This document shows, in pieces, positions 25,411 through 63,724 of a stretch of DNA of 64,000 nt (position 1 is the first letter of the stretch; each line of letters opens with the position of its first letter). The DNA comes from a virus. The stretch is from positions 62,001 through 126,000 of IMG/VR virus record IMGVR_UViG_3300033148_006964. One strand, written 5' to 3'. Under the pieces are notes generated by a model. That model was not told the origin of the DNA. It was given only the letters and a program-made list of their open reading frames with translations, and ran no database searches. Both the position numbers and the translations under genes were made by a program.

Positions 25411-27477
25411 ATGGCTAATGAAGGTCTTTCAGGCTTAACAACCCCTACAGTTGAAAGCGCGTCTAGTTCTGGGCAGTCTTTATTTGTAAGAGGGTCTATT
25501 AAATATGATTCTCCATTTTTAGATATGACCAGTACATTTATTCCCAAGACTATAAAAGGTATATTGAGATTTGTAGCAGCTTATGTCCTTGGTGATGGAC
25601 TTGTAGCTCAATGTATATCAAAATTATCTGAATATCCTATTACAGACTTATTATATAATGATAGTAACCCGTCTCATATAGAAGACGATAAAACTATTGA
25701 TTATTGGAAAAAGTTTTTAGAAAAACAACTTAATATAGTAAGATCATTAAAACAAGCTGGTATGGATTATTATGCTTATGGCAATTCTGTTATATCTATA
25801 AGTTATCCGTTTAAAAGAAGATTAAGATGCCCAAAATGCAAACAAGAACAAGCTATTGAATCTGAGAAAACTTCGTTTAAAGCTTTTAAATTTTATTCAG
25901 AATGTATATCTAAAAAATGTAAATATAAAGGTGAGATGGAAGCTTATGATTTAAACACCAAAGAACTTGATAAATTTAATATTGTACATTGGGATTTAAT
26001 GTGTTTAGATATTAAATATAATAGTATTACTGGAGATCATTTTTATTTTTATTCTCCTCCTATAGATATAGTAACCGCTGTTCGTAGAGGAGATATGGAT
26101 ATTATTAAAACTACAAGGCTTGAAGTTATAAATGCGATAAAAAAACGTAAAAAGCTTAAGATAATGGAAGACAATGTATTTCATCTTAAAAGACCTGCAC
26201 CGCAATATATCATCCCTGCAGAGCGTGGATGGGGAATCCCTGTAATAATGCCGGTTATGAAAGACATTTTTCATAATAAAATTCTTAAAAAAGGCAACGA
26301 AATGATAGCGTTTGATCATATTGTTCCACTAAGAATTCTTTTTCCTAAAGGTACTGGGGATATAAGTCCACATGCTACTGCCAATCTTGGTACATGGAAA
26401 ACTAAGATAGAAGATGAAATAAGAAAATGGAAAGCAGACTCTAACTACATTTCAATTGTACCCCTTCCAGTAGGTATTGAAAATATTAGTGGAGACGCTA
26501 AGATGTTAATGGTAACTCCTGAAATTAAAGTAACTGAAGATAATATTATAATGGGTATAGGTATTATTCCTGAGATCATACGTGGCGGCGCATCATGGTC
26601 TGGTAGTAACGTTTCGTTACGAGTTGTAGAAAATACCTTTTTAAATCATCGTAATGATATGCAGGAAATGATTGATTTTATAATTGAAAACATAGCCAGG
26701 TATTTAGAAAAACCCGCTATAGAAATCACAATGTCTGATTTTAAAATGGCCGATGATCTTCAGAAAAAAGAACTTATGTTAAAAGCATCTGCCGGACCTC
26801 CTTCAGAAGCATTAGTATCTAAACCTACAGTTACTAAAGAACTTGGTTTTGATCCTGATGAAGAATATAAACTTTCTGAAGAAGATCTTCAAAGACGAAT
26901 AGAGATGCGGATTAAAGAAGCAGAAGGATCTGCAGAAGCCCAAGGTTCTGCCACTCTTCTTAATGCTATGTATTCAGCAGACGCTCAAATGGAACAGCAA
27001 AATAGAATGGATATGCATGAGAGGGAGAATCAGTCTAAACGTGATGAATTTACTCAAATGCAGCATGAAGACAATGCTCAACAGGTTACTAAAGAAGTAA
27101 GCGCTTTAAGTGCTCAGCCTGAAAAAATATCTCTTCAAAATCTAATTTTAATATTAACCCGGAGATTTGCAAGACTTTTAAAAATTAATGTGGATGATTT
27201 TAAAATAAGAATGCTCGCCTTAAAAAATAGTATGCCAGCACTTTATAAGGAGATCTTTGATAATTTAAAAGAAATGAACCTAATAGAAGCTGATACATCC
27301 CCTGACCTTCAAGCTGTTCAAAGGTTTACTCCTGGTCAAATACCTTCTCATACTCAAGGAGAAGGTTCTGCCGAACAGCCTCCTACCCCTGCTGAAGCCA
27401 ATGCGGGAGTAGGTACAATAAATGCACCTCTACCAGAGGTAAGTCCTCCCAGATCAGCCGTAAGCTCTTCGGTTTAG
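25411..27477 (+). CDS. Portal-like protein with zinc-ribbon insertion
   Basis: 688 residues, the last gene of the plus-strand virion block, start ATG after TGGAGTGTGAG. The portal protein forms the dodecameric ring through which DNA is packaged and to which the tail attaches. Visible portal-like features are the MDYYAYGN segment (about residue 112), a central clip/stem-like region and the IIPEIIRGGASWSGSNV stretch followed by VENTFLNHR (about 385-415). A Gln/Glu-rich C-terminal tail follows. Unusually, a four-cysteine ribbon (CPKC ... CISKKC) is inserted at about residues 140-170. No terminase gene is adjacent, which is atypical. The portal assignment is by overall pattern, not by a diagnostic motif. 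Confidence 0.7.
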   Translation: MANEGLSGLTTPTVESASSSGQSLFVRGSIKYDSPFLDMTSTFIPKTIKGILRFVAAYVLGDGLVAQCISKLSEYPITDLLYNDSNPSHIEDDKTIDYWKKFLEKQLNIVRSLKQAGMDYYAYGNSVISISYPFKRRLRCPKCKQEQAIESEKTSFKAFKFYSECISKKCKYKGEMEAYDLNTKELDKFNIVHWDLMCLDIKYNSITGDHFYFYSPPIDIVTAVRRGDMDIIKTTRLEVINAIKKRKKLKIMEDNVFHLKRPAPQYIIPAERGWGIPVIMPVMKDIFHNKILKKGNEMIAFDHIVPLRILFPKGTGDISPHATANLGTWKTKIEDEIRKWKADSNYISIVPLPVGIENISGDAKMLMVTPEIKVTEDNIIMGIGIIPEIIRGGASWSGSNVSLRVVENTFLNHRNDMQEMIDFIIENIARYLEKPAIEITMSDFKMADDLQKKELMLKASAGPPSEALVSKPTVTKELGFDPDEEYKLSEEDLQRRIEMRIKEAEGSAEAQGSATLLNAMYSADAQMEQQNRMDMHERENQSKRDEFTQMQHEDNAQQVTKEVSALSAQPEKISLQNLILILTRRFARLLKINVDDFKIRMLALKNSMPALYKEIFDNLKEMNLIEADTSPDLQAVQRFTPGQIPSHTQGEGSAEQPPTPAEANAGVGTINAPLPEVSPPRSAVSSSV

Positions 27478-27625: not shown

Positions 27626-27964
27626 TCAGTTAATGGATTTGCTGCTGTTATTGTGCAACTGTTCTTCAACCGAAACGGTTACGAACGCATCTATAAATTT
27701 TTCAACTTCTTCGCTGGTAAAGGCTCTAGCTTTACCTTCTTTATCAATTATCTGCAAAGTAAGATGCGGCACAATGTTTACAAAAGTCCTTTCTCCAGAC
27801 TTATATAGTATTTCGAACGATCCTTCTTCTTCAATATCTAAGTCTCGTTCTTTTAAGTTTTGATATGAGTATTTAATTTCTGTTACTTCGTTCATAGAAA
27901 TAATATTAATATTAGTTGTTAAAGATTCATTATCCTTTGGCCTTTCTAAAATTTTTATAAACAC
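27626..27964 (-). CDS. Unknown protein at the end of the ubiquitin-like operon
   Basis: 112 residues, start ATG after GGAGGCAAGGTGTTT. It is mixed alpha/beta with strands around IKYSYQNL and GSFEILYKSG and an acidic helical C-terminus. A terminator hairpin (27986-28013) lies between it and the upstream ubiquitin-like gene, so it may be only partly cotranscribed. The family is not recognised. A beta-grasp relative is conceivable but not supported by a motif. Confidence 0.65.
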   Translation of the reverse strand: MFIKILERPKDNESLTTNINIISMNEVTEIKYSYQNLKERDLDIEEEGSFEILYKSGERTFVNIVPHLTLQIIDKEGKARAFTSEEVEKFIDAFVTVSVEEQLHNNSSKSIN

Positions 27965-27985
27965 CTTGCCTCCAAATAGATTAAG

Positions 27986-28013
27986 GTAAAAGAGGGAATT
28001 ATTAATTCCCTCT
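27986..28013 (-). terminator. Terminator downstream of the ubiquitin-like gene
   Basis: Nine-bp perfect stem GAGGGAATT / AATTCCCTC followed on the minus strand by TTTTACC. It separates the core conjugation genes from the 112-residue gene. Confidence 0.8.
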
Positions 28014-28032
28014 TAAATATAGCAATTAAAGA

Positions 28033-28509
28033 TTAAAGATTGCCCTTTGTTTTTTCTGAAAAAATCAACCTCATATTTCCATCATCATCTGGTCGTGTTA
28101 ATTCGGTTGAACCAGGAATACTCCCGCCACCTGTCGCAAGGCGATATTCATAAATTGGATCACCATTTTCTTTAAAAAATTCACTTCTTTGTTCGGAAGG
28201 AAGTTGATCAAGAAGTTGATTTATTGTGATGCCGTCTTCAACTGGAAGAGTAACATTAGCACCATTTCCAAATCTTATAATTGTAACATCCCATGGAACA
28301 TTACCTTTAGTCGGTTCTGCGATAAAAACACGCATTCCATCAGTAAGAATTTTATCAAGAGAAGCTGGAGATTGTCCTACAGTTACACATCCTTCAACAA
28401 ACTTTTCTTCAGCACGTTCTAAAAGATGTTTTATAGTAGCATCTTCATTAGTTTCAAAAGAAAACTCTCTATTAGCAGTACCCATTTTAATTAAAGTTAC
28501 ATCTAGCAT
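28033..28509 (-). CDS. Tandem ubiquitin-like (beta-grasp) modifier
   Basis: 158 residues, ribosome site AAGGATATTAAA-ATG. Two similar beta-grasp modules are visible: residues 1-70 (MLDVTLIKMG, then a helix ATIKHLLERA) and 72-158 (WDVTIIRFG, then ITINQLLDQL). Each begins with a beta-hairpin and a helix, as in ThiS, MoaD and ubiquitin, so the whole resembles ISG15 or BilA two-domain modifiers. Each module ends in the same tetrapeptide TKGN (67-70 and 154-157); the protein ends TKGNL, without a ready-made C-terminal diglycine. The encoded JAMM peptidase next door could expose a C-terminal TKG. The gene lies 31 bp after the E1 gene in one operon. The assignment rests on fold pattern plus neighbours. 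Confidence 0.75.
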   Translation of the reverse strand: MLDVTLIKMGTANREFSFETNEDATIKHLLERAEEKFVEGCVTVGQSPASLDKILTDGMRVFIAEPTKGNVPWDVTIIRFGNGANVTLPVEDGITINQLLDQLPSEQRSEFFKENGDPIYEYRLATGGGSIPGSTELTRPDDDGNMRLIFSEKTKGNL

Positions 28510-28540
28510 TTTAATATCCTTCTAAAATATTGTATAGAAT

Positions 28541-29311
28541 TTAAGATGTACACGTCTCCCGCATTGCCATTACGGGCTCTTCATTAAATTTTTTTAAATA
28601 AAAAGATTCTGGATACAATGAAAATTGAACTTCATTCCATAAATGAAGTCCTATTTCATCATCGTTTCGTAGATTATCATTACCATAATGACAATTAAAA
28701 TGTTGTATAATTCTACCTGCTGCAATGCTTGCAATAAACATTACTGTAGTAATTATAGATTCACTTGCTCCACATAACGATGTTTCTGCTTCCTCATCTG
28801 TATATAAAGTTTGCATCCATTGTTCTACTTCGTCTCGTGAATGAGGATTAAATGCGTAAATCCGACCATTTCGCAACCCCATTCTGGTTTCAATTACAAG
28901 ATCCGTATTAAACGAACGCTTTATACATTTTTCAAATATTTCTTTTCTACTGGACATAGTATCTGTTAATAGCATCACATAATTTGATTTTACTGATTCT
29001 TGATCAGTAACCATCTCATTATGAGCTTCAATTTTAAATCCACATTTTCTTAAAATAATTTCTTTAAGAGCTTCGACTTTTGGCATGCCGACATGTGATT
29101 GCTCATATATTTGATTTGCTAAATTATGTTCAGCTACTATATCTCCATCGAATACTTTTAAAACACCCTGTTTTAATGGAGTGTTCCCCCATCCAAACTG
29201 AGCCAGCATTGAAGCGATATAACTTCCAGTAGCACCAACCCCAACCAGTGAAATTGTTTTTTTCCCAATATCAGTTGGATTAAGCAATTTTTGTTGTCTA
29301 GTGTAATCCAA
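28541..29311 (-). CDS. ThiF/E1-like ubiquitin-activating adenylyltransferase
   Basis: E1-like enzymes adenylate the C-terminus of a ubiquitin-like protein and pass it on as a thioester. Visible family features are a Rossmann nucleotide loop G-V-G-A-T-G-S after strand TISLVGVG, the D-G-D-I-V-A-E-H-N-L-A-N-Q signature, and a downstream TDTMSSR segment. A Cys in SLCGASE is a candidate thioester site. The preferred start is TTG at 29311, two bases after the peptidase stop and preceded by AGGAGATTTTAAA. An ATG at 29350 is open but overlaps the peptidase gene and lacks a ribosome site. With the TTG start the protein is 256 residues, a single-domain E1. Confidence 0.82.
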   Translation of the reverse strand: MDYTRQQKLLNPTDIGKKTISLVGVGATGSYIASMLAQFGWGNTPLKQGVLKVFDGDIVAEHNLANQIYEQSHVGMPKVEALKEIILRKCGFKIEAHNEMVTDQESVKSNYVMLLTDTMSSRKEIFEKCIKRSFNTDLVIETRMGLRNGRIYAFNPHSRDEVEQWMQTLYTDEEAETSLCGASESIITTVMFIASIAAGRIIQHFNCHYGNDNLRNDDEIGLHLWNEVQFSLYPESFYLKKFNEEPVMAMRETCTS

Positions 29312-29312
29312 T

Positions 29313-30161
29313 TTAAAATCTCCTGTTATTGATATCGTGAACCATTTCATCTAATTCATAATCTTCTAACATTATCTTATTAAGCTTTTCATTTCTTATT
29401 TTAAACAAGTCTTCTTGATAATTTAAAAGATTATTTTTATATTTCCCATTTTTTTTACTATATGACTTATAATTTGTAAAATCTTCTTCGGGGAGATTTA
29501 TTTTTTTAAGTTCTTTAACTTTTTTCTTAATATTATTAGTTTTAATAACTTTTTCAATCTTTTGTATTTTTTTAGCTGTATCAATATTATCGGTAGATAG
29601 TATTAACGCAACATCTTTAAGCTTTGTTTCTTCAGAGTTTTGTAATAGTCCGTCTTCTTCAACCGTCCATTTTACGTTATCAAACTTAATTTGTTGATTA
29701 TAATCAAAAAACGATACAGACATTATTTCTTTTTTATTACATATACCTCTTAAAAAATAAGTTTTTCTTCGATTCATTTTTTCAATTGCTTCGTCTTCAT
29801 CTTGTTGAGACGGACTGACCCCCATAGTATGGTGAGAATGCCCCCAGAATCTAACTTTTCCAATATCATCTTCTCTATTACGATTAATTAACCAAACCCC
29901 CATATCAGATTCACCTTCAGTGGATATTTCACATGTACCACCATTAGCTTCTGAATGTTTAGGATAAAAAATCTCTCTTATAAAATATGTATCATTACCA
30001 CGTTCATCTACGATTCCAAAAAAACCAACTTCATCTGAATGAACGTCAACTAATGCTTCTATCCATTTGATAGCAGAGCTTGCAAAAATTATCTTTGGCG
30101 CTTCTTTTTTTTCTGGCTTTAAAATTGTATAGGTTGTAGCTTCATTTTTTTCGAATTTCAA
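29313..30161 (-). CDS. JAMM/JAB-family deubiquitinase-like metallopeptidase
   Basis: 282 residues. The JAMM zinc site is complete: catalytic Glu44 in HSDEVGFFG, then H108-S-H110, seven residues, S118, two residues and D121 (GHSHHTMGVSPSQQD). In ubiquitin-like systems this family trims precursors or removes conjugates. The C-terminal about 130 residues (from about 150) are a Lys/Glu-rich coiled-coil-like extension not usual for the family. The start is TTG at 30161, overlapping the upstream TGA stop (TTGA) and preceded by a GGGGGTGAAG ribosome site. So this gene is translationally coupled to the E2-like gene above and to E1 below. Confidence 0.85.
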   Translation of the reverse strand: MKFEKNEATTYTILKPEKKEAPKIIFASSAIKWIEALVDVHSDEVGFFGIVDERGNDTYFIREIFYPKHSEANGGTCEISTEGESDMGVWLINRNREDDIGKVRFWGHSHHTMGVSPSQQDEDEAIEKMNRRKTYFLRGICNKKEIMSVSFFDYNQQIKFDNVKWTVEEDGLLQNSEETKLKDVALILSTDNIDTAKKIQKIEKVIKTNNIKKKVKELKKINLPEEDFTNYKSYSKKNGKYKNNLLNYQEDLFKIRNEKLNKIMLEDYELDEMVHDINNRRF

Positions 30162-31261
30162 TCTTCACCCCCTACAATTGGCCAATTTTTTGCATTTCTA
30201 CCCCACTCATCTCCTAAATTTGGAGTTGTTACAAACCTGGTAAGTATATCCGTTAACATAAATAAATCTACATTAACAAAAGATTCAAATACACATTCCC
30301 AAGCAGATCCATAACAAGGAGTACCGCTTAAACAAACATGCGGACATTGAAATCCACCATCTGAATTATTAACTAAATATTCTCTTGTAAGATTTCTAAT
30401 TATAATAGGATTAGATGTATTAGCTTCTCCAAATAAAGTTTTTAATAAAACCCTAAACTCAATACGACCAATAAGTCTATTATTACCATCTATAGCATTT
30501 ACAGTCTGAAGATCTTTTGTTCTTATAATAAGATATCTTTTAGTAAATAATACATCATCAATTTTATTAGAATCATCTTCTATAAGCTCCTTAGCTTGTT
30601 CGATAATTTTTTTAATAAAAGGATGGTTTTCAATTGGAGTTCGAAGAACATCTATTTTATTTTTTAATTCTATTAAAATAGACATTTTTTTACTAAATAC
30701 ATTAACCTGTTCTTTTAATACCTTAGCTCTACTTGCAAGATCAGAGTTCATGCCTTCTGCTATGACTTCGGGTGCGTCATTTATATTTACAGTATTAAGA
30801 TTTTCATTAAACTTTTCAATCTTAGACCCTGAATCCTGGACATCTCTAAAGCTAAAATCATCTTCATCATAAGAATCATCTTCCACAGGCATTGCAGCAA
30901 GTATTGGTGGCTCTTGATCCGGTGGAATATCTTCTGGCGGTGCTTCGAGCGGTCCATCTGTAATTACCTGTTCTTCTAACGTCTCCGCTTGTGCTTCTGG
31001 TGCCGGACATTCATTAAGCTCTTGAACAATAGGTTCATGCAATTTACACGTAATTATATCTCCTGATATATCGTTTGTAATATGACACCCTCGTATTGTT
31101 GCGTCTTCAGTTATTAATTCAACTACCCTATCAGAGGATTGGTCTGCAACTTCTAATTCAAAAATACCATCTGATTCGTGAGATTTTAATATATAATCAA
31201 AAATCTCTTCATCAATATAATTAAGAGAGAAGTTTACAGCCGCATCTATTCTAATTTTCAT
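30158..31261 (-). CDS. E2-like (UBC/RWD-fold) conjugating protein B
   Basis: 367 residues. The C-terminal about 130 residues carry an E2-like signature: P307-H308-V, then Cys316-Y-G after eight residues, followed by a helix with an aromatic/acidic pattern and ending NWPIVGGED. The spacing PH-x7-C-(L/Y)-G is identical to that in the larger neighbour, so the two are paralogues. The middle is acidic and low complexity (Pro/Glu/Asp rich, residues about 85-150). The N-terminal about 75 residues are unrecognised. It starts 20 bp after the larger E2 gene and overlaps the peptidase gene by 4 bp. The terminal GG is worth noting. The E2 assignment is by signature and context. Confidence 0.65.
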   Translation of the reverse strand: MKIRIDAAVNFSLNYIDEEIFDYILKSHESDGIFELEVADQSSDRVVELITEDATIRGCHITNDISGDIITCKLHEPIVQELNECPAPEAQAETLEEQVITDGPLEAPPEDIPPDQEPPILAAMPVEDDSYDEDDFSFRDVQDSGSKIEKFNENLNTVNINDAPEVIAEGMNSDLASRAKVLKEQVNVFSKKMSILIELKNKIDVLRTPIENHPFIKKIIEQAKELIEDDSNKIDDVLFTKRYLIIRTKDLQTVNAIDGNNRLIGRIEFRVLLKTLFGEANTSNPIIIRNLTREYLVNNSDGGFQCPHVCLSGTPCYGSAWECVFESFVNVDLFMLTDILTRFVTTPNLGDEWGRNAKNWPIVGGED

Positions 31262-31281
31262 AAAAATTTTTTCCTTCCAAT

Positions 31282-33180
31282 TTAAGAATGAAGCGGAATC
31301 GCATCCGCTAAAATATTATCAAATTTTTTTTCTGCCTCAGATATTTTATTGAGGATCTTATTAATATCTTTATTTCTATCAGCATTGTTCGCTACTTCTT
31401 CACTTACTTCAGGCCACCTATCTATATAAGCTCCTGCAGCATCATCAGTGTTAGCTGTTTGCAAAAAAAGCATCAATTGAAAAATTATTTCATACAGATC
31501 TCTTCGTATGTAAGAATCGGCCATACTTTTTACTAAATTACCAAGACACATATGTCCATCTGAAAAAATATGTGGTGCTTGCATTTCTGTTTCAAGAGCC
31601 TCTATTTGATGTTTAGTGTTATAAATACGAATAGTGTTATTTTCATCATACCTTTCATCTAACATTCCAATTTTTATATGAAAAGTACCAATATCATGCC
31701 AACAGTTAGATCTATTATCTTGAGCATATAAATTATGAGTATATACATTAATTTTTCCATCTTTTATATTAATAGAACTTACTTCGTCAAGAGCTATGGT
31801 TTCGTTATAGTTATATAAAGCTTTTTCTTTTTCTTTTTTTTTCATATCAACTTCATCGAATGCGTCAATTTGATTCATATACTTCATCATCATCTTACCG
31901 CTTTCCATAGCTTTATTAAAATGCATTTCATAATCTTGTTTAGATTTTTCTTTTAATGTAGTAATCTCTTTCAAGATGCTTATGGCATTTTTAACTGAAA
32001 AATTTACATATTCCTCCTTATTCATTTGAGCTATATTATTATAATAGCCTAAATCAATCTTAAAAAGATCTTCATATTTAATATCATTATTAATTCTTCT
32101 TACAAATTCTTTAAATATTAACGATGAAGACTCATTTTCTCCAAAATAAACCATAGGATATAAAAATGTAATAAAGCATCTATCCTTAAGTGCCCATATA
32201 ACATTTGTAATAAAATCTTTAAAAATAAAATCAAATTTAGCATACGGTGAATTGGATTCATTTTTTAATATTTCTTCTATATCATTATATTTTTCAGTCT
32301 CTCTAAGCTCTTGAATTTCAGAATTTATTTCAGAAGAATGTAATACATGTAAATTTTTAATTGTATGACCAAAACATAATGCTTTACACCCAGGAGGCAC
32401 TTCTTTAAATTTAGAATTATCATACGGAACAAGAGATATTATTAACGTATGCTTTTCTATTTCTTTTAAATTAAATTCATTACTATCAAACAATGTTTTA
32501 AAATTATAAACTCCATTTGTAAGGAAAATAATATTTTTATTAGTTTTTTTTACTAAATTTACTACTTCCTTTTCTTGCGGGACATCACCAGTGCCGTATA
32601 TTATTACTTTACGATTTATTTTTTTTATTTCATCGTTACGTATAATAACCTGTGGACTTGCAAAATTTTCTGTAAACTTTACAAAAAATAAATCTATTTC
32701 TTTTTTTAATGGGTCTTCAAAAGTTGGTTGTTCTTCTTCATTTAATACCGCAGGAGTTGTATTAATTATATCACCTATTATATCCTCTTCTGAATCTTTA
32801 TGTTCATCATCAACAAAAAGATTTAATACAAAATCTTTAAAATCTGAAAGATCAAATCTGTTCGTTCCAATACCAAGATCTTTAATATTACGATATTGAT
32901 CGGTATTCTTTGTAGCTTCAGATGTTAATGCGTCTAATACATCGTCATCGGCATAATATTTATGTAACAATATCATCATTCCATTAATATTTGAAGCATA
33001 GTGCGTTGGACTAAGCACAGATAGATCATCTGACGCTACAAAATAATTAAGGATAATATCACTTATTTCATTAAAATCTTTTTCATTAATAGCAGCGGCT
33101 TCTCCACCATTATTCAATGCATATGGAATAAAATCAATATCAAGGAATTCTGCTAACCATTTTTCTATAAATCCATACAT
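31282..33180 (-). CDS. E2-like (UBC-fold) conjugating protein A, large
   Basis: 632 residues, first gene of the conjugation operon, ATG after TAGGAGTGCATTATT. The C-terminal domain (about 500-610) has P536-H537-I, then Cys545-L-G-N and a downstream W-P-E. This matches the active-site region of E2-like proteins in bacterial ubiquitin-like operons (P-H, S-D-G, H-x-C-L-G-N). The N-terminal about 150 residues are helical and acidic. A central Rossmann-like stretch (about 195-290; KVIIYGTGDVPQ) could be a partner-binding or regulatory domain. Whether it conjugates the tandem modifier is inferred. Promoter F (33243-33270) precedes it by about 60 bp. Confidence 0.78.
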   Translation of the reverse strand: MYGFIEKWLAEFLDIDFIPYALNNGGEAAAINEKDFNEISDIILNYFVASDDLSVLSPTHYASNINGMMILLHKYYADDDVLDALTSEATKNTDQYRNIKDLGIGTNRFDLSDFKDFVLNLFVDDEHKDSEEDIIGDIINTTPAVLNEEEQPTFEDPLKKEIDLFFVKFTENFASPQVIIRNDEIKKINRKVIIYGTGDVPQEKEVVNLVKKTNKNIIFLTNGVYNFKTLFDSNEFNLKEIEKHTLIISLVPYDNSKFKEVPPGCKALCFGHTIKNLHVLHSSEINSEIQELRETEKYNDIEEILKNESNSPYAKFDFIFKDFITNVIWALKDRCFITFLYPMVYFGENESSSLIFKEFVRRINNDIKYEDLFKIDLGYYNNIAQMNKEEYVNFSVKNAISILKEITTLKEKSKQDYEMHFNKAMESGKMMMKYMNQIDAFDEVDMKKKEKEKALYNYNETIALDEVSSINIKDGKINVYTHNLYAQDNRSNCWHDIGTFHIKIGMLDERYDENNTIRIYNTKHQIEALETEMQAPHIFSDGHMCLGNLVKSMADSYIRRDLYEIIFQLMLFLQTANTDDAAGAYIDRWPEVSEEVANNADRNKDINKILNKISEAEKKFDNILADAIPLHS

Positions 33181-33242
33181 AATAATGCACTCCTATTTAA
33201 ATAAAGGTTTAAAATTTTATGATAAATATTTCTATCATTGTA

Positions 33243-33270
33243 GTTATTACAGAAAAATGATTTGAATAAC
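33243..33270 (-). promoter_or_regulatory. Phage-type promoter F (drives the ubiquitin-like operon)
   Basis: Minus strand: GTTATT, 16 bp, AATAAC with TG upstream, then TACAATG. It matches the shared promoter architecture of the set, with AATAAC instead of TATAAC. It lies about 60 bp before the first operon ATG and 3 bp past the neighbouring nuclease gene. Confidence 0.7.
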
Positions 33271-34413: not shown

Positions 34414-34668
34414 TTAATTCTTTTTTCTTGCCCAACTTATTATAAGTTTGCGAGACCTAATGTTTAAATCGTTATTATTTTCAATTGCATTTATAGCATC
34501 CTGATCTTCAGCCATTGTAACAAAACCAAACCCTTTAGATTTTTTGGTTTCCTTGTCCTTAACAATAAAAGCCTCTTCTACAGATCCAACATTAGTTTCA
34601 AAAACTTCTTTTAATTCATTCGCAGTAGTATCATAAGGAATGTTTCCTATGTATAACTTTTTTGCCAT
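34414..34668 (-). CDS. RRM-fold RNA-binding protein
   Basis: The preferred start is ATG at 34668 after AAGGATGTAAAAAC, giving 84 residues: a single complete RRM domain. Both signature motifs are present: RNP2 (LYIGNIPY, residues about 4-11) and RNP1 (KSKGFGFV, about 42-49), with aromatic residues for stacking RNA bases. Small stand-alone RRM proteins occur in cyanobacteria and some other bacteria but are unusual in phages. The gene has its own promoter (C, at 34811-34838). Confidence 0.9.
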   Translation of the reverse strand: MAKKLYIGNIPYDTTANELKEVFETNVGSVEEAFIVKDKETKKSKGFGFVTMAEDQDAINAIENNNDLNIRSRKLIISWARKKN

Positions 34669-34696
34669 GTTTTTACATCCTTTAAATGAAGAGAAA

Positions 34697-34735
34697 GAAA
34701 AAGAGAGAGAAATTAAAACCTCTCCCTCTTCTTCT
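34697..34735 (-). terminator. Candidate terminator or leader hairpin upstream of the RRM gene
   Basis: On the minus strand a purine/pyrimidine stem (GGGAGAG / CTCTCTC) followed by TTTTTC lies between the promoter and the RRM start codon. It could be an attenuator in the leader rather than a full terminator. Confidence 0.45.
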
Positions 34736-34810
34736 AACAGCAAATGGCCAATTAAGACCAATTAGTACTTTTAAATAAAAAAAAATATGTTATTTATTTC
34801 ATTCAATATA

Positions 34811-51790: not shown

Positions 51791-52969
51791 TTATTGTAAA
51801 AGTTTTTTTAAATATTGAAGATAACTATCGTTTTCACACATACATTTACCAGGAGAATCACTGATCTTAGCCACAGGCCTTCCATTGACCTCTACAAGCT
51901 TATATACGTTCTGTAGAGGTATTATACCAACATCATTGGTAAGGTTAGTGCCGATGCCGAAAGAACACTTTATTTTTCCTTTACAATAATCAGCGATCTC
52001 TATTGCTTTTGGGATAGTAAGGCCATCTGAGAATACAATAGTTTTTCCAAGCGGGTTTACTTTTAAAGACTTGTAAGACTTAATAATCTTTTTAGCAAAA
52101 GTAATTGGGTTTCCCGAATCGTGTCGAACGCCATCGTATACTCTTAAAAAGTATGGCTTAGAATCTTTAAGGAATTTATCAACCCCAAGTGTATCTGATA
52201 ACGCAATAGATAATTGACTCCCATAAAAATTACGCCAAATATCAAGTGCTTTTCGTTGAGAATCAAGAGGGTGACGAAACGCTTGATAATAGCAAACAAA
52301 TTCATGAGCGAAAGTGCCTACTGGTGTTAAATTAAAATCCATAGCAAGCTTAACATTGCTGGTTCCAGTAAAAATTTCTGACGGAAAAATTCCAGAAAGA
52401 TTCTTAATAACAGTTCTATGCCATTTTCTAGTAAACGCTCTTCTTGTGCCAAAATCTACAAATTTGAATTCATTATTTTCAGTGTAATCTACTATAAGCC
52501 TCATTTTTTCATTTAGCCTCTCCATACCAGTTTTACGCTCTACAGAGTAGTCGTAATGTTTATTATTATGAAGTGAGTATACTTCATGTACTATTTGAAG
52601 AAGATATATTTCCCACATCATAACTTGTAAGATTGGCCCTTCAGCCCATATTTCGAGACGTCCAAGATCATTACTAATATGAAGATATTGTTTATCAAGT
52701 TGGAATGTCTCAAGATAATTCAAGTATTCAGAGCAGAAGAATGATAAGTTTCTTAGATAATTAATTTCCTTTTTAGTGAACCTTAAATTACACAAGTTTA
52801 TTAATCTTTTATCAACTTCATCTTTACACTTATATAAATTTCTAGTTTCTTTAGATTCATTTTCATTTCTACATTTAAACCTGTATTTAGCTATGCTATC
52901 AGAATCTTGATAAAAAAATATCTGCTGCATAGTAAACTTGTACAGGTCATTATATAATAAACTTTGCAT
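51791..52969 (-). CDS. pncB: Nicotinate phosphoribosyltransferase
   Basis: 392 residues, close to the usual about 400. The enzyme makes nicotinate mononucleotide from nicotinate and PRPP in the Preiss-Handler branch of NAD salvage. The conserved GTFAHEF motif (about 214-220, with the phosphorylated His), FGTRRAF, the VYDGVRHDSGNP stretch and FSDGL are all present. Start ATG at 52969. The nicotinamidase gene stands 12 bp upstream, so nicotinamide can be recycled to nicotinate mononucleotide within one operon. Confidence 0.92.
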   Translation of the reverse strand: MQSLLYNDLYKFTMQQIFFYQDSDSIAKYRFKCRNENESKETRNLYKCKDEVDKRLINLCNLRFTKKEINYLRNLSFFCSEYLNYLETFQLDKQYLHISNDLGRLEIWAEGPILQVMMWEIYLLQIVHEVYSLHNNKHYDYSVERKTGMERLNEKMRLIVDYTENNEFKFVDFGTRRAFTRKWHRTVIKNLSGIFPSEIFTGTSNVKLAMDFNLTPVGTFAHEFVCYYQAFRHPLDSQRKALDIWRNFYGSQLSIALSDTLGVDKFLKDSKPYFLRVYDGVRHDSGNPITFAKKIIKSYKSLKVNPLGKTIVFSDGLTIPKAIEIADYCKGKIKCSFGIGTNLTNDVGIIPLQNVYKLVEVNGRPVAKISDSPGKCMCENDSYLQYLKKLLQ

Positions 52970-52981
52970 AATATTTTCTCC

Positions 52982-53617
52982 TTATAGATCACAAACGAGA
53001 TCTGTTTTTATTATAGATGCACCCATCTTGTTCATTTCTTTAATGGCAGTTTCATGGTTGTCTTCATTGCTAATAAATATTCCCGCCGTTGCGTCTTCAA
53101 CAACATAAACCTTATCTAAGATATGTCCCATTTCGTTAATTAAACCCTTGACTGCTGCTATAACACAAAAATTTGTAGCCACGCCAGAAACGACAACGCT
53201 GTCTATGCTATTAAGCACAAGTATTTTTGTAAGGTTGTCTGGTTGTCCAAGCTCTTTGTCCCATATGTCACACGTTGCCTTTTCAAAAATATAATTGCAA
53301 ACAGGTTCTACTATAAAGTTTGAAAGTTCACTTCCTAACTTACTTTTTATACAGTTACAAAAAACCATATTTGTTTCTGGAATTTTCTTATGCCCATCTG
53401 TATTAGCCATACAATGCGGAGGGAACCTATTAAACTCCGGGTCGTCATCTTTATGAGTGTCAACAGTAGCAACGATAGGAATTGAGTGATTGCAGCAATG
53501 AAAGGTTAAATCTCTAAGGTTTTTCTTAATATTTTTTGCGCCCGGAACGTACAATGCTCCATCCTCATTCATAAAATCATTTTGTGTATCAATGTCAAGA
53601 AATAAAAAGTTACCCAT
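52982..53617 (-). CDS. pncA: Nicotinamidase (isochorismatase-like hydrolase)
   Basis: 211 residues, ATG after AAAGGAATTATT. It hydrolyses nicotinamide to nicotinate. Key residues are D in DIDTQNDF (about 8-15), the metal-binding region DTHKDDDPEF then PPHC (about 53-69), and the nucleophile Cys in GVATNFCVI (about 150). The active-site Lys is in the expected region. It sits directly before pncB in the same operon. The pair converts the product of NAD-cleaving enzymes back towards NAD, with host NadD/NadE completing the pathway. Confidence 0.9.
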   Translation of the reverse strand: MGNFLFLDIDTQNDFMNEDGALYVPGAKNIKKNLRDLTFHCCNHSIPIVATVDTHKDDDPEFNRFPPHCMANTDGHKKIPETNMVFCNCIKSKLGSELSNFIVEPVCNYIFEKATCDIWDKELGQPDNLTKILVLNSIDSVVVSGVATNFCVIAAVKGLINEMGHILDKVYVVEDATAGIFISNEDNHETAIKEMNKMGASIIKTDLVCDL

Positions 53618-54560: not shown

Positions 54561-54761
54561 TTATGGTTCCTTTACACTTAGTTGATGTCTATGACATTCA
54601 TCAAACATTTTCTCGACGAAATTTAATTCACTGAATATTTGTCCAGCAACAAATTCATTATTAATCCCAATTGTCAGATCTATTTTATATTCATTTATGG
54701 CCTTTTTAACTTTGTTGTACTCACGCATTTTCCGTTTTACTTTTCTTTGCGTTGTTAACAT
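54561..54761 (-). CDS. Small basic protein (66 aa)
   Basis: 66 residues behind AAAGGATAGCGGACC-ATG, starting within the last codons of kdsA (7-bp overlap). A basic N-terminus (TTQRKVKRKMREY) is followed by a helical segment. Probably cotranscribed with kdsA. Function unknown. Confidence 0.55.
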   Translation of the reverse strand: MLTTQRKVKRKMREYNKVKKAINEYKIDLTIGINNEFVAGQIFSELNFVEKMFDECHRHQLSVKEP

Positions 54762-55564
54762 GGTCCGCTATCCTTTATTAAATTTAATAATTTGTGCAAT
54801 TCAATAAGCTTCGGTACTTCTTTTTCAAAAGTCTCAATAGAAATACTATTAGGCCCATCACATTTTGCATTATCAGGGTCAGGATGAACCTCAAAAAATA
54901 GTCCATTAACATTTTGACATATTGCAGCTTTAGCTAATGGAACCGCTAATTCTCTTTTACCGGATGAACACCCATTAGCACTTCCAGGACTTTGTACACT
55001 ATGAGTAGCATCAAATATAACAGGTACACCTATTTTCTTTAATTCATGAACGCCAGCAAAGTCAACTACAAGACGATTGTACCCAAAGAATGTACCTCTT
55101 TCAGTAAGCATACATCGATTACTATTAGCTTTAAAAATTGCATACTTCATATTTTCAGGTGACATAAAATTACCCTTTTTTATATTTATAGGTAAACCAG
55201 TTTCCCCGGCGGCTGCAAGTAAATCTGTTTGACGGCAAAGAAAAGCAGGTATTTGAAGAACGTCAACTACTTTTGAAATTATACTAGCTTCATTTGGAAT
55301 ATGAATATCCGTTAATATTGGAAGCCCAAATTTACTTTTGATTTTTTCGAGTATATTTAATCCTTTTAAAATACCAGGTCCTCTAAATGAATCTACAGAT
55401 GTACGATTAGCCTTATCATATGACGCTTTAAATATTATTTTTATATTATTTTTTAATGAAATGTCTACTAATCTTTCAGCAACCTTAAAACATAAACTTT
55501 TAGATTCTATAACACAAGGTCCTGCAATAAAAAACAATGAATCATTAAACAAAATTACCTCCAT
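54755..55564 (-). CDS. kdsA: 3-deoxy-8-phosphooctulonate synthase (metal-dependent type)
   Basis: KdsA condenses PEP and arabinose-5-phosphate to Kdo-8-phosphate, the committed step towards the Kdo of LPS. Conserved stretches: FIAGPCVIES (N-terminal), FKASYDKANRTS, PAFLCRQTD, FGYNRLVVDF, DATHSVQ, EVHPDP and CDGPNS. A Cys in the GPC motif, as in Aquifex-type enzymes, plus downstream His, Glu and Asp indicate the metal-dependent class. I use ATG at 55564 (269 residues); a TTG at 55552 is better placed after GGAGG, and an ATG at 55636 has no support. It is the clearest host-physiology gene in the window. Confidence 0.93.
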   Translation of the reverse strand: MEVILFNDSLFFIAGPCVIESKSLCFKVAERLVDISLKNNIKIIFKASYDKANRTSVDSFRGPGILKGLNILEKIKSKFGLPILTDIHIPNEASIISKVVDVLQIPAFLCRQTDLLAAAGETGLPINIKKGNFMSPENMKYAIFKANSNRCMLTERGTFFGYNRLVVDFAGVHELKKIGVPVIFDATHSVQSPGSANGCSSGKRELAVPLAKAAICQNVNGLFFEVHPDPDNAKCDGPNSISIETFEKEVPKLIELHKLLNLIKDSGPC

Positions 55565-55571
55565 TTGATTA

Positions 55572-55654
55572 ATAAAAAAGATGGATAGAGAAAAGGAATC
55601 AAAAATATAGGGAAAAGAAAAAAAACTATATTTCATCTAAAAATCTCTATCCAT
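55572..55654 (-). terminator. Hairpin terminator/attenuator in front of kdsA
   Basis: Ten-bp outer stem ATGGATAGAG / CTCTATCCAT around an inner stem (AAATATAG / CTATATTT), followed on the minus strand by CTTTTTTATT. It precedes kdsA by a few bases, so read-through or alternative folding could control its expression. Confidence 0.55.
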
Positions 55655-59534: not shown

Positions 59535-59819
59535 TTGGTAGATGTTGCAAACAGGTATGAATATGAAATAATACAGATGGAAGTGATGTCAGACCATATT
59601 CATATATTTGTTGGGGCCAAACCGACGGTTGCTTCGATAGATATAGTAAGAGTTTTTAAAAGTATCACTGCTATTGAATTGTTCAAGAAATACCCAAAGT
59701 TAAAATCTTTTTATGGTAAATGTGGCTCTCTTTGGTCGGTAGGAAAATTCATATCAACTATTGGTAACGTTTCTGCTAAGACAATCAAAAAATATATTGC
59801 AGAGCAAAAGGGAAAATAA
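59535..59819 (+). CDS. tnpA: IS200/IS605 TnpA (Y1 HUH transposase), 5' end degenerate
   Basis: 94 residues from a TTG start. Homologous sequence continues upstream in frame to about 59436 (YHIIFCPKFRY), so the normal N-terminus is present as sequence but has no ATG, GTG or TTG in frame. The HUH motif H-I-H-I-F is intact, and a Tyr in KKYIAEQ is the expected catalytic residue. Either a start codon is lost or initiation is non-canonical; activity is doubtful. Confidence 0.7.
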   Translation: MVDVANRYEYEIIQMEVMSDHIHIFVGAKPTVASIDIVRVFKSITAIELFKKYPKLKSFYGKCGSLWSVGKFISTIGNVSAKTIKKYIAEQKGK

Positions 59820-59822
59820 AAT

Positions 59823-60983
59823 ATGTTGATACAAAGAGGCTACAAGTACAGAATTTTCCCGACTAAAGAGCAAGAAGAATCGTTGTTTCAATGTGGTGGT
59901 AATGCCAGATTTTTATGGAATTATGTTCTTAAAACAAATCAGGATTATTATAAAGAAACTGGTAAATTTAAGTTTTATTATGAATTAGCTATTTCATTAC
60001 CAACGCTCAAAGAAGAGTACCCCTTCCTTAAAGAATCATTTTCACAATCTTTACAAATGGTTTTACGGCAATTTGATAAAGCGTTAAAAGATTCCTTTAA
60101 AAAAGAAAAAGGATTTCCATCTTTTAAGAAGAAAATGTTGTTGAATGATAGTTTCTCCTGTCCACAAAAATGGCGATTGGGAAAAGGGTTTGTTTTCATA
60201 CCTAAAGTTGGAGAGATAAAATGGGCGAAACATAGGTCTATGAAAGGTAAACCTAAATCAATCACAATTTCACAAGATGGTAACAAATGGTATTGTTCTG
60301 TTTTGTGTGAATACAACATATCAGAACAAGAAAAAAGATATAATAATGTTGTCGGTTGTGATGTTGGTTTGAAAAATTTTGCCACGCTATCTGATAGTAT
60401 TATAATAAGTAATCCCAAGCATACTAAAAAGTATGAAAATAAGTTAGCAAAAGAACAGAGGAAATTGAATAGAAAACAAAAAGAAAGTAAAAACAGATTC
60501 AAACAAAGACTTAAGGTTAGAAAAATTCAAAACAAAATAAAAGATACTCGTAAAGATTTTCTTCATAAAACATCTAATTTAATAACCAAGAGTTATGATG
60601 GAATTGTGGTAGAGGATTTGAATATAAAAGAGATGATGAAAAATCATTATCTCGCTAAAGCAATCGGAGATGTTTCATGGTCAGAGTTTAATAGACAACT
60701 TGAATACAAATGCAGATGGAATTTTAAGCATTATATCAAAATTGGTAGATTTGAACCGACAAGTAAGATGTGCTCAAATTGTGGTTGTATCCAAGAAATG
60801 TCTTTGAATAAAAGGATATTTAATTGTTCTGATTGCGGAGTATCAATAGATAGAGATTTAAATGCATCTTTAAATATTAGAAATATAGGATTAAGTACCG
60901 TAGGGCATACGGGAAATTACGCTTGTGGAGATAGTTCGTCGGAATTGTCGTTGAGGCAAGAAAAAGAATGCTTAGTAAACTAA
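59823..60983 (+). CDS. tnpB: TnpB (IS605-type RNA-guided nuclease)
   Basis: 386 residues, ATG after GGGAAAATAAAAT. TnpB is the RNA-guided nuclease ancestor of Cas12 proteins. The three RuvC acidic residues are intact: D in GCDVGLKNF (about 182), E in VVEDLNIK (about 264) and D in SIDRDLNAS (about 341). The zinc finger CSNCG ... CSDCG lies just before the last. The length is normal. It is followed by the right-end hairpins (60971-61010), which in such elements form the guide RNA scaffold. Confidence 0.92.
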   Translation: MLIQRGYKYRIFPTKEQEESLFQCGGNARFLWNYVLKTNQDYYKETGKFKFYYELAISLPTLKEEYPFLKESFSQSLQMVLRQFDKALKDSFKKEKGFPSFKKKMLLNDSFSCPQKWRLGKGFVFIPKVGEIKWAKHRSMKGKPKSITISQDGNKWYCSVLCEYNISEQEKRYNNVVGCDVGLKNFATLSDSIIISNPKHTKKYENKLAKEQRKLNRKQKESKNRFKQRLKVRKIQNKIKDTRKDFLHKTSNLITKSYDGIVVEDLNIKEMMKNHYLAKAIGDVSWSEFNRQLEYKCRWNFKHYIKIGRFEPTSKMCSNCGCIQEMSLNKRIFNCSDCGVSIDRDLNASLNIRNIGLSTVGHTGNYACGDSSSELSLRQEKECLVN

Positions 60984-63108: not shown

Positions 63109-63363
63109 TTATATTATTGAAACATCTATTAATTTTTTATCGACATTTAAACTTTCAAGTAAGACAACTATATTTCTTATGGTTTTACAATCAATAAATA
63201 TCTCTGTATTAATATCGATTTCAAAGTTATCTTCTATTTCCATAAAAAGTTCTATCTGATCAAGAGAATCAATACCAAGGTCAGATTCAAGATGACTGTC
63301 CATAATTATTTTTTCTTTTTTAATGGACAGTCTCTCAGATATTATATCAACTAGCTTTAACAT
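63109..63363 (-). CDS. acpP: Acyl carrier protein
   Basis: Start ATG at 63363 after AAGAGAAAATA; a longer frame has an unlikely start. 84 residues, the usual ACP length. The phosphopantetheine site is D-S-L within LGIDSLDQIEL (Ser about residue 37), followed by a helix-2 acidic patch. ACP carries acyl chains in fatty-acid or lipid A/LPS chemistry. A phage-borne ACP together with kdsA points to envelope lipid metabolism. It overlaps the next gene's end by 17 bp. Confidence 0.85.
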   Translation of the reverse strand: MLKLVDIISERLSIKKEKIIMDSHLESDLGIDSLDQIELFMEIEDNFEIDINTEIFIDCKTIRNIVVLLESLNVDKKLIDVSII

Positions 63364-63724
63364 TATTTTCTCTTGGTAACTTAAGCTTATTCCAGACATC
63401 ATCTTCTAAAAAAGCGACTCTTGATTCGCCAATATTATCACCGAATATTTCCTTAGCTGCCTTTTCTTTTATAAGCGCCCATCCCCCTGTACGATATGGA
63501 CTATCTTTATTTGTTCCATTTCTTACTGATATAAAGATAACCCCTTGTTTCATATATTCCTTGCATTTGTCACATGGTTCATAATCAAAAACACATTTTC
63601 TTGGAGCCTCTTCATCATTCTTTAAATGACCAAGTAATAGAACTTCTTTTTTGTCTTCTCCACAAAAAAAACATTTAGGTATAACTGGGTTAAGTCCATG
63701 TTTTTTACTTATTCTTAATGACAT
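63347..63724 (-). CDS. Zinc-finger protein (125 aa)
   Basis: Start ATG at 63724 is preferred; the longer frame starts at 63742. 125 residues with an N-terminal CFFCG and a later CDKC pair (a probable zinc ribbon), then a helical and beta domain (RVAFLEDDVWNKL). Function unknown; it overlaps the ACP gene by 17 bp and the partial gene upstream by 10 bp. Confidence 0.65.
   Translation of the reverse strand: MSLRISKKHGLNPVIPKCFFCGEDKKEVLLLGHLKNDEEAPRKCVFDYEPCDKCKEYMKQGVIFISVRNGTNKDSPYRTGGWALIKEKAAKEIFGDNIGESRVAFLEDDVWNKLKLPRENNVKAS

What the first reader, a model, noticed from the sequence alone, without database searches (positions are those of the whole stretch)
27626..33270. Complete ubiquitin-like conjugation operon carried by a phage
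One minus-strand operon with coupled starts encodes two E2-like proteins, a JAMM peptidase with every zinc ligand (E44, H108, H110, S118, D121), a single-domain ThiF/E1 and a tandem beta-grasp modifier. Seen: motifs, gene order and start overlaps. Established: bacterial operons with ISG15-like modifier, E1, E2 and JAB (Bil and related systems) exist as anti-phage defence. Inference: on a phage it could modify its own virion, tag host proteins, or compete with host Bil. The operon has its own conserved phage promoter, so it is used as a phage function.
Basis: partly seen in the sequence, partly recalled or inferred. Interest (0 to 1): 0.95.

Follow-up and report, generated by a model that had tools for sequence, protein, structure and literature searches.

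The report
Ubiquitin-like tagging operon in phages
A large bacterial virus carries a complete, conserved set of genes for attaching and removing a ubiquitin-like protein tag, a kind of machinery best known from eukaryotes and from bacterial anti-phage defence, and its whole virus clade has kept this set as a core feature with unknown targets.

Summary
Five minus-strand genes (window 28033-33180) encode two paralogous E2-like enzymes, a JAMM peptidase, a minimal single-domain E1 and a tandem ubiquitin-like (Ubl) modifier. Sequence profiles, AlphaFold/Foldseek and invariant catalytic residues support every component: E1 matches UBA5 (4.6e-20), JAMM matches Rpn11 (7e-10), Ubl matches SAMP2 (1.5e-6) and linear di-ubiquitin/ISG15 by fold. 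The E2 fold's only leading matches are UbcH7/UbcH8, at modest scores. The same five genes occur in all 20 related phage records with enough sequence, nearly always next to the portal gene. They track portal divergence (Mantel r 0.72-0.91) and are under purifying selection, which indicates a vertically inherited core phage function. It is not a Bil operon: the E1 lacks Bil's extra domains and the E2s lack its CEHH motif. Both Ubl copies end in the same tail motif, which changes in step between copies (KGN/KGN, KGS/KGS, NAA/NAA, SAA/SAA), implying both ends are read by the same enzyme. Related cassettes occur in crAss-like, Flavobacterium and marine phages. Activity is inferred; targets are unknown.

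The parts
33236..33251 (-). promoter-like site TGTAATAACTACAATG, 56 bp upstream of E2a
   Evidence: member of a TGGTATAACTATAATG motif; the high-scoring sites in the genome are nearly all intergenic and on the minus strand; AATAACTATAATG upstream of E2a in L014 and L015
31282..33180 (-). E2a, 632 aa: N-terminal unknown region, long coiled coil (about 388-462), C-terminal E2 domain (about 465-600) with candidate catalytic Cys545 in APHIFSDGHMCLGN
   Evidence: AlphaFold pLDDT about 91 in the E2 domain; Foldseek top hits UbcH7/UbcH8, prob 0.94-0.99, E 0.04-0.09, TM about 0.48
31546..31548 (-). codon of E2a Cys545, candidate catalytic cysteine
   Evidence: invariant in 27 E2 domains (A3) and in 24 longer sequences
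30158..31261 (-). E2b, 367 aa: second E2-like protein, paralogue of E2a's C-terminal half, candidate Cys316 in CPHVCLSGTPCYG
   Evidence: E2 profile match 2.9e-26; Cys invariant among E2b orthologues; own fold not predicted
30314..30316 (-). codon of E2b Cys316
29313..30161 (-). JAMM/MPN+ peptidase, 282 aa, TTG start, E44 and H108-S-H110-x7-S118-x2-D121
   Evidence: ligands invariant in 44 homologues; profile hits Rpn11 7.3e-10, CSN5, archaeal JAMM1
28541..29311 (-). E1/ThiF adenylating enzyme, 256 aa from TTG (269 aa if from ATG 29350), invariant Cys193 (269-aa numbering)
   Evidence: Pfam ThiF 2.8e-20; profile to UBA5 4.6e-20 with the invariant Cys aligned to the Cys of UBA5 GVCAAS; start choice from homologues and RBS
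28772..28774 (-). codon of E1 Cys193, candidate thioester cysteine
   Evidence: invariant in 41 E1s
28300..28509 (-). Ubl domain 1 (residues 1-70), ends TKGN
28033..28299 (-). Ubl domain 2 (residues 71-158) plus stop, ends TKGN-L
27990..28014 (-). terminator-like hairpin, 11-bp stem, just after the Ubl stop
   Evidence: -13.5 kcal/mol, z -3.8; not listed by the consensus terminator scan

Best explanation
This is a phage-encoded, self-contained and reversible Ubl-conjugation system that serves the phage's own lytic programme. Inferred steps: the JAMM enzyme cuts the tandem precursor after the tail motif (KG|N or KGN|) at one or both copies and later removes the tag from targets; the minimal E1 adenylates the Ubl C-terminus and holds it on Cys193; it passes to Cys545 of E2a and/or Cys316 of E2b; the E2s attach it to target proteins, with the long N-terminal part of E2a as the likely substrate recruiter in place of an E3. 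Shown here: the parts, their folds (predicted), the invariant catalytic residues, the operon boundaries and clade-wide retention under purifying selection. Inferred: catalysis, order of transfer, targets. I judge enzymatic activity about 85% likely. For targets, phage replication or assembly factors are my first guess (about 45%) and host proteins the second (about 35%).
For: Profiles: E1 to UBA5/MoeB/ThiF/Cap2/BubCD, JAMM to Rpn11/CSN5/JAMM1, Ubl to SAMP2/MoaD. Folds: tandem Ubl to linear di-ubiquitin, FAT10, ISG15, and best TM (0.57-0.59) to the bacterial multi-ubiquitin protein 8u38; E2a to UbcH7/UbcH8. Catalytic residues invariant in 27 E2, 44 JAMM and 41 E1 domains. Same five genes in all 20 records with portal at least 44% identical and enough sequence (contig ends cut the cassette short in a few); the 7 lacking them all end shortly after the portal (L083's record has them elsewhere). 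Pairwise identities of all five proteins track the portal's (Mantel r 0.72-0.91, p 0.0005). dN/dS 0.08-0.19 where dS is measurable in the closest trio. Tail motifs change in step between the two copies although the copies differ from each other (27% identity) almost as much as non-equivalent copies of different proteins do (25%).
Against: No activity, conjugate or target is shown. E2 homology rests on a weak fold score (E 0.04) and a motif; sequence profiles reach known E2s only at E about 1 and no Pfam E2 family. The Asn after Gly in KGN is unlike the terminal GG of known modifiers. Wide occurrence of related cassettes in different phage groups is also what a mobile defence module would show. 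A core role in replication or assembly is inferred from retention, not from a partner gene.
Confidence: 0.55

Rival explanations
1. It is an inter-phage or superinfection-exclusion system: the phage tags structural proteins of competing phages, as bacterial Bil tags phage tails.
For: The module types are those of Bil (tandem Ubl, E1, E2, JAMM; PMC11354881). Related cassettes sit in several unrelated phage groups.
Against: Retained in every member of the clade and tracking the portal, unlike the patchy presence usual for defence modules. No PADLOC defence model beyond the E1 domain of CBASS E1-E2 proteins among the 25 shown. Bil-specific E1 and E2 features absent.
Confidence: 0.15
2. It is counter-defence: the phage's JAMM strips host Bil/CBASS-type conjugates, or its Ubl, E1 and E2 sequester or mis-direct the host pathway.
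For: The E1 is related in sequence to CBASS Cap2 and BubCD E1 domains; hosts use such conjugation against phages (PMC10097602).
Against: A stand-alone JAMM would suffice; full conjugation machinery with two intact E2s and a private modifier with its own tail motif argues for an autonomous pathway.
Confidence: 0.15
3. The cassette is active but its main role is to regulate proteins by degradation, delivering tagged proteins to a host Clp-type machine.
For: In two bacterial MAG contigs (L162, L163) the same cassette with a KGN-ending Ubl is directly followed by a Clp-family AAA+ unfoldase gene.
Against: No Clp gene seen next to the phage cassettes; the E1 link between L162/L163 and the phage clade is weakly supported (85/59).
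Confidence: 0.1
4. It is a sulphur-carrier pathway (ThiS/MoaD-like), as the usual annotation 'thiamine biosynthesis protein' of relatives says.
For: Ubl profile matches SAMP2, MoaD and ThiS; E1 matches ThiF and MoeB.
Against: No thiazole or molybdopterin genes near it; E2 domains and a JAMM have no role there; most tails end KGN rather than GG.
Confidence: 0.04

Closest known systems
Bil (BilABCD, bacterial ISG15-like defence)
   Same: tandem Ubl, E2, JAMM peptidase and E1 encoded together
   Different: E1 is a single adenylation domain without the inactive domain and about 80-aa Cys domain of BilD; E2s use a PH-x(n)-G-x2-C-x-G motif, not the CEHH motif of BilB; two E2s; gene order E2a-E2b-JAMM-E1-Ubl; carried and retained by phages (Bil features from PMC11354881)
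Bub and prokaryotic Ubl operons 6a-6e of Iyer et al. 2006 (PMC1779556)
   Same: E1, E2, JAB and Ubl gene sets; type 6e includes tandem Ubl repeats
   Different: there E1 is usually fused to JAB (BubCD in the PDB); here all are separate proteins, with two E2s on coiled-coil carriers
Archaeal SAMP2 / JAMM1 / UbaA and UBA5-UFM1
   Same: SAMP2-like Ubl, JAMM1-like peptidase, minimal UBA5-like E1 with the Cys in the same place
   Different: archaeal SAMP conjugation is described without E2 enzymes (PMC11354881); tail KGN instead of GG; the phage E1 scores far below the NCBIfam SAMP-E1 cutoff
Lambda-type tail assembly genes I and K (Ubl plus JAB)
   Same: phage Ubl next to a JAB peptidase
   Different: no E1 or E2 in that pair; recorded as tail assembly genes (PMC1779556)
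crAss001 gp76-gp79 region and Flavobacterium Fpv phages
   Same: Ubl, E2-like, JAMM and E1 cluster, Ubl tail KSG followed by more protein
   Different: one E2-like protein of other architecture; located by uracil-DNA glycosylase and primase; annotated only as thiamine biosynthesis and metalloprotease

Membership tests
Bil (BilABCD) | BilA: two consecutive Ubl domains | tested here: met
   AlphaFold/Foldseek and repeat alignment
Bil (BilABCD) | BilD: inactive plus active adenylation domain with about 80-aa Cys domain | tested here: not met
   256-269 aa, single ThiF domain
Bil (BilABCD) | BilB: CEHH motif (Cys, then Glu and two His downstream) | tested here: not met
   the invariant His precedes the Cys; no conserved His after it
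Bil (BilABCD) | BilC: JAMM peptidase | tested here: met
   ligands invariant
Bil (BilABCD) | anti-phage activity by tagging phage structural proteins | not testable with these tools
   needs an experiment
Bub | E1 fused to JAB (BubCD) | tested here: not met
   separate genes in this operon and in the relatives examined; PDB entry 9ea4 named BubCD
PRTRC cassette | ThiF of family TIGR03736 | tested here: not met
   39.1 bits against a cutoff of 144.75
CBASS type II (Cap2 E1-E2 fusion) | E1 and E2 in one chain, with a CD-NTase gene | tested here: not met
   E1 and E2 are separate; no nucleotidyltransferase in the operon
Ubiquitin-like conjugation systems (general) | Ubl + E1 with Cys + E2 with Cys + DUB in one unit | tested here: met
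Ubiquitin-like conjugation systems (general) | covalent conjugates on target proteins | not testable with these tools
   biochemistry or mass spectrometry needed

The most novel reading that the evidence does not exclude
Large lytic phages run a private, reversible ubiquitin-like signalling system as an inherited core function, with a polyubiquitin-like precursor whose modifier ends in Gly-Asn instead of Gly-Gly, and with substrate choice built into two coiled-coil E2 enzymes; related systems are spread through crAss-like and other phages under the label 'thiamine biosynthesis'.
Probability: 0.45. Interest if true: 0.92.

Novelty: new variant of a known kind. Interest (0 to 1): 0.82.

Why it matters
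Ubl conjugation in bacteria is known mainly as a weapon against phages. Here phages own the complete machinery and have kept it as a core trait of a clade, with related forms in cultured phages such as crAss001 and Flavobacterium Fpv phages. That makes 'what do phages tag?' directly testable. The lock-step change of the tail motif in both Ubl copies is a natural experiment on how E1 and JAMM recognise a modifier's C-terminus.

Tried and rejected
The single-sequence E1 search found no viral relative; the alignment query was needed. Pfam E2 families: no match for any of 27 members, so family membership there is not claimed. E2 profile against PDB sequences: only E about 1; replaced by fold comparison. 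The 112-aa ORF as a sixth gene: rejected. A BilD-like E1: rejected on size and domain content. Sulphur transfer: rejected because of E2 and JAMM. Generic sigma-70 scan: no excess over shuffles (39 against 35); the phage-specific motif was found by comparing upstream regions instead, and at its loose threshold it is near chance (20.6 expected), so only the high-scoring intergenic sites count. BFVD fold search for E2a: only unnamed phage proteins at the top. Literature: nine searches (the last was swamped by unrelated words) found no report of a complete E1-E2-JAMM-Ubl cascade in phages; subscription papers and preprints are not held, so absence is not proof. One record is annotated 'E1 enzyme family protein', so the E1 alone has been noticed by others.

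Full report
CHECK OF THE OBSERVATION. The window is bases 62001-126000 of a 180,926-base virus record. The five minus-strand ORFs are present: 632 aa (31282-33180), 367 aa (30158-31261), 282 aa (29313-30161, TTG), 269 aa (28541-29350) and 158 aa (28033-28509). The record is a phage: terminase large subunit (phrog_675, 1.5e-53), tail sheath, head protease, RNA polymerase beta-type subunits, helicase, exonuclease and primase. The gene next to the operon, at 25411-27477, matches the annotated portal of Salmonella phage Arash.

COMPONENTS. E1: Pfam ThiF 2.8e-20. A profile of 41 phage E1s finds UBA5 at 4.6e-20, then UBA6, MoeB, ThiF, Cap2 and BubCD. The invariant Cys (193) aligns with the Cys of UBA5's GVCAAS segment; from my own knowledge that is UBA5's catalytic Cys250. 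JAMM: a profile of 44 homologues finds Rpn11 (7.3e-10), CSN5 and archaeal JAMM1, and H-x-H, Ser and Asp are invariant. In five relatives the middle residue is Lys or Tyr, and the loop length varies in some. Ubl: AlphaFold from seven sequences (mean pLDDT 78) gives two beta-grasp units. Foldseek finds linear di-ubiquitin, FAT10 and ISG15 at about 1e-5, and the best superposition (TM 0.57-0.59) is 8u38, a bacterial multi-ubiquitin-domain protein. The single-domain profile finds SAMP2 of the JAMM1-SAMP2 entry 5lda at 1.5e-6. E2a and E2b: an iterated profile unites both with E2-like proteins of other phages. In 27 domains the His and Cys of PH-x(n)-G-x2-C-x-G are invariant. AlphaFold of E2a has pLDDT about 91 over the C-terminal domain (beta-meander, Cys loop, helices). 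Foldseek's top three PDB hits are all E2 enzymes (UbcH7, UbcH7, UbcH8; prob 0.99, 0.96, 0.94), but with E of only 0.04-0.09 and TM about 0.48. The E2 assignment is therefore likely, not proven. The N-terminal 380 residues of E2a have no assignment.

OPERON LIMITS. A promoter-like site 56 bp upstream of E2a belongs to a genome-specific motif TGGTATAACTATAATG. The high-scoring sites are almost all intergenic and on the minus strand, and the motif recurs upstream of E2a in L014 and L015. An 11-bp hairpin follows the Ubl stop. The 112-aa ORF beyond it has no homologue among the relatives and is excluded. The E1 start is better placed at TTG 29311, behind AGGAG and 1 nt after the JAMM stop, because homologues begin there.

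RELATIVES. With a five-member E1 alignment, 65 viral loci were found. L014-L019 carry the same five genes in the same order. Using the portal as an independent marker, 77 loci were drawn. Of those with portal at least 44% identical, all 20 records with enough sequence carry the cassette (two pairs are near-duplicates; a few are cut by contig ends), 19 near the portal and one (L083's record) elsewhere. The 7 without it end shortly after the portal. In the outer portal clade (28-37% identity) only 3 of 33 records tested have a strong E1 match and 3 a weak one. Identities of all five proteins track the portal (Mantel r 0.91, 0.90, 0.91, 0.87 and 0.72 for E1, JAMM, Ubl, E2a and E2b). In the closest trio dN/dS is 0.08-0.19 where dS could be estimated, though dS is high. 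This is vertical retention under constraint.

TAIL MOTIF. In 17 tandem proteins the end of each copy was compared. Most have KGN after both copies, one has KGS after both, one NAA after both and one SAA after both. The two copies within a protein are on average only 27% identical, close to non-equivalent copies of different proteins (25%), while equivalent copies across phages are 33-36% identical, so recent gene conversion is an unlikely general cause (the NAA protein, at 48%, is the exception). The same enzyme most likely reads both ends. Single-domain relatives in marine phages mostly end exactly in ...GAKGN; others carry 1 to about 36 further residues. The Gly of KGN aligns with the penultimate residue of the SAMP2 chain, so Asn occupies the place of the last Gly. 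Whether Asn is kept or trimmed is open.

WIDER OCCURRENCE. crAss001 gp79-gp76 and Flavobacterium phage genes encode a Ubl with a KSG tail, an E2-like protein, JAMM and E1, annotated as thiamine biosynthesis protein and metalloprotease or hypothetical; the Ubl and E2 assignments there are by sequence pattern only. 78 phage records match the crAss001 E1. The E1 tree puts the KGN-type phages, two bacterial MAG contigs and one Vicingus MAG contig in one supported group (99/96), apart from the crAss/Flavobacterium group; the window's clade is 100/98. Only nine cellular loci matched in one genome for each of 84,980 species at this sensitivity. In two of them the cassette is followed by a Clp-family AAA+ gene.

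COMPARISON. Bil as summarised in PMC11354881 has an E1 with inactive and active adenylation domains plus a Cys domain, and an E2 with a CEHH motif; neither is met. Bub E1 is fused to JAB; not met. PRTRC ThiF is far below cutoff. PADLOC shows only CBASS E1-E2 models, for the E1 domain. It works like a Ubl-conjugation system and belongs to that broad kind, but to no named operon type that I could test.

MECHANISM AND STATUS. Shown: gene content, predicted folds, invariant catalytic residues, operon limits, retention, tail covariation. Inferred: processing by JAMM, E1 activation, transfer to E2s, conjugation, reversal. Unknown: targets, and which Ubl form is mature. Retention next to virion and replication genes favours a function in the phage's own programme over a passenger defence, but this is an inference.

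Noticed in passing
L003 2253-6663; L002 2613-6624; L054, L044, L063, L060: crAss-like and Flavobacterium phages carry a Ubl (KSG tail), E2-like, JAMM and E1 cluster beside uracil-DNA glycosylase and primase, annotated as thiamine biosynthesis protein and metalloprotease.
   Followed up: partly
L162 4497-12102; L163 4380-12143: Bacterial MAG contigs with Ubl (KGN), E2, E2, JAMM and E1 directly followed by a Clp-family AAA+ unfoldase gene.
   Followed up: partly
L005 2796-6675: Xanthomonas phage PhiXhv-15: 141-aa protein ending in a Ubl-like stretch with -SGG, 892-aa protein with an E2-like motif and Cys-rich ends, then E1.
   Followed up: no
L054 3695-4898: In this crAss-like phage the Ubl ORF ends right after KSG and an HNH-type homing endonuclease-like ORF follows, with the rest of the usual protein as a separate ORF.
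   Followed up: no
window 51791-53617: Nicotinate phosphoribosyltransferase and an isochorismatase/nicotinamidase-like gene side by side: possible NAD salvage by the phage.
   Followed up: partly
window 54755-55636; L010 8705-9442: DAHP/KDO8P-type synthase and a cytidylyltransferase of the KdsB kind: possible lipopolysaccharide sugar genes on the phage.
   Followed up: partly
window 34414-34761; 63109-63402: A stand-alone RNA recognition motif protein and an acyl-carrier-like protein in the phage.
   Followed up: no
window 59535-60983: IS200/IS605-type pair: TnpA-like ORF next to an OrfB/TnpB with Cas12f1-like domain; similar ORFs elsewhere in the record.
   Followed up: no
L152 824-1666; G034 and G035 records (L157, L158): An E2-like protein and a Ubl ending in LKGA with E1 and JAMM in a more distant portal-bearing phage.
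   Followed up: partly
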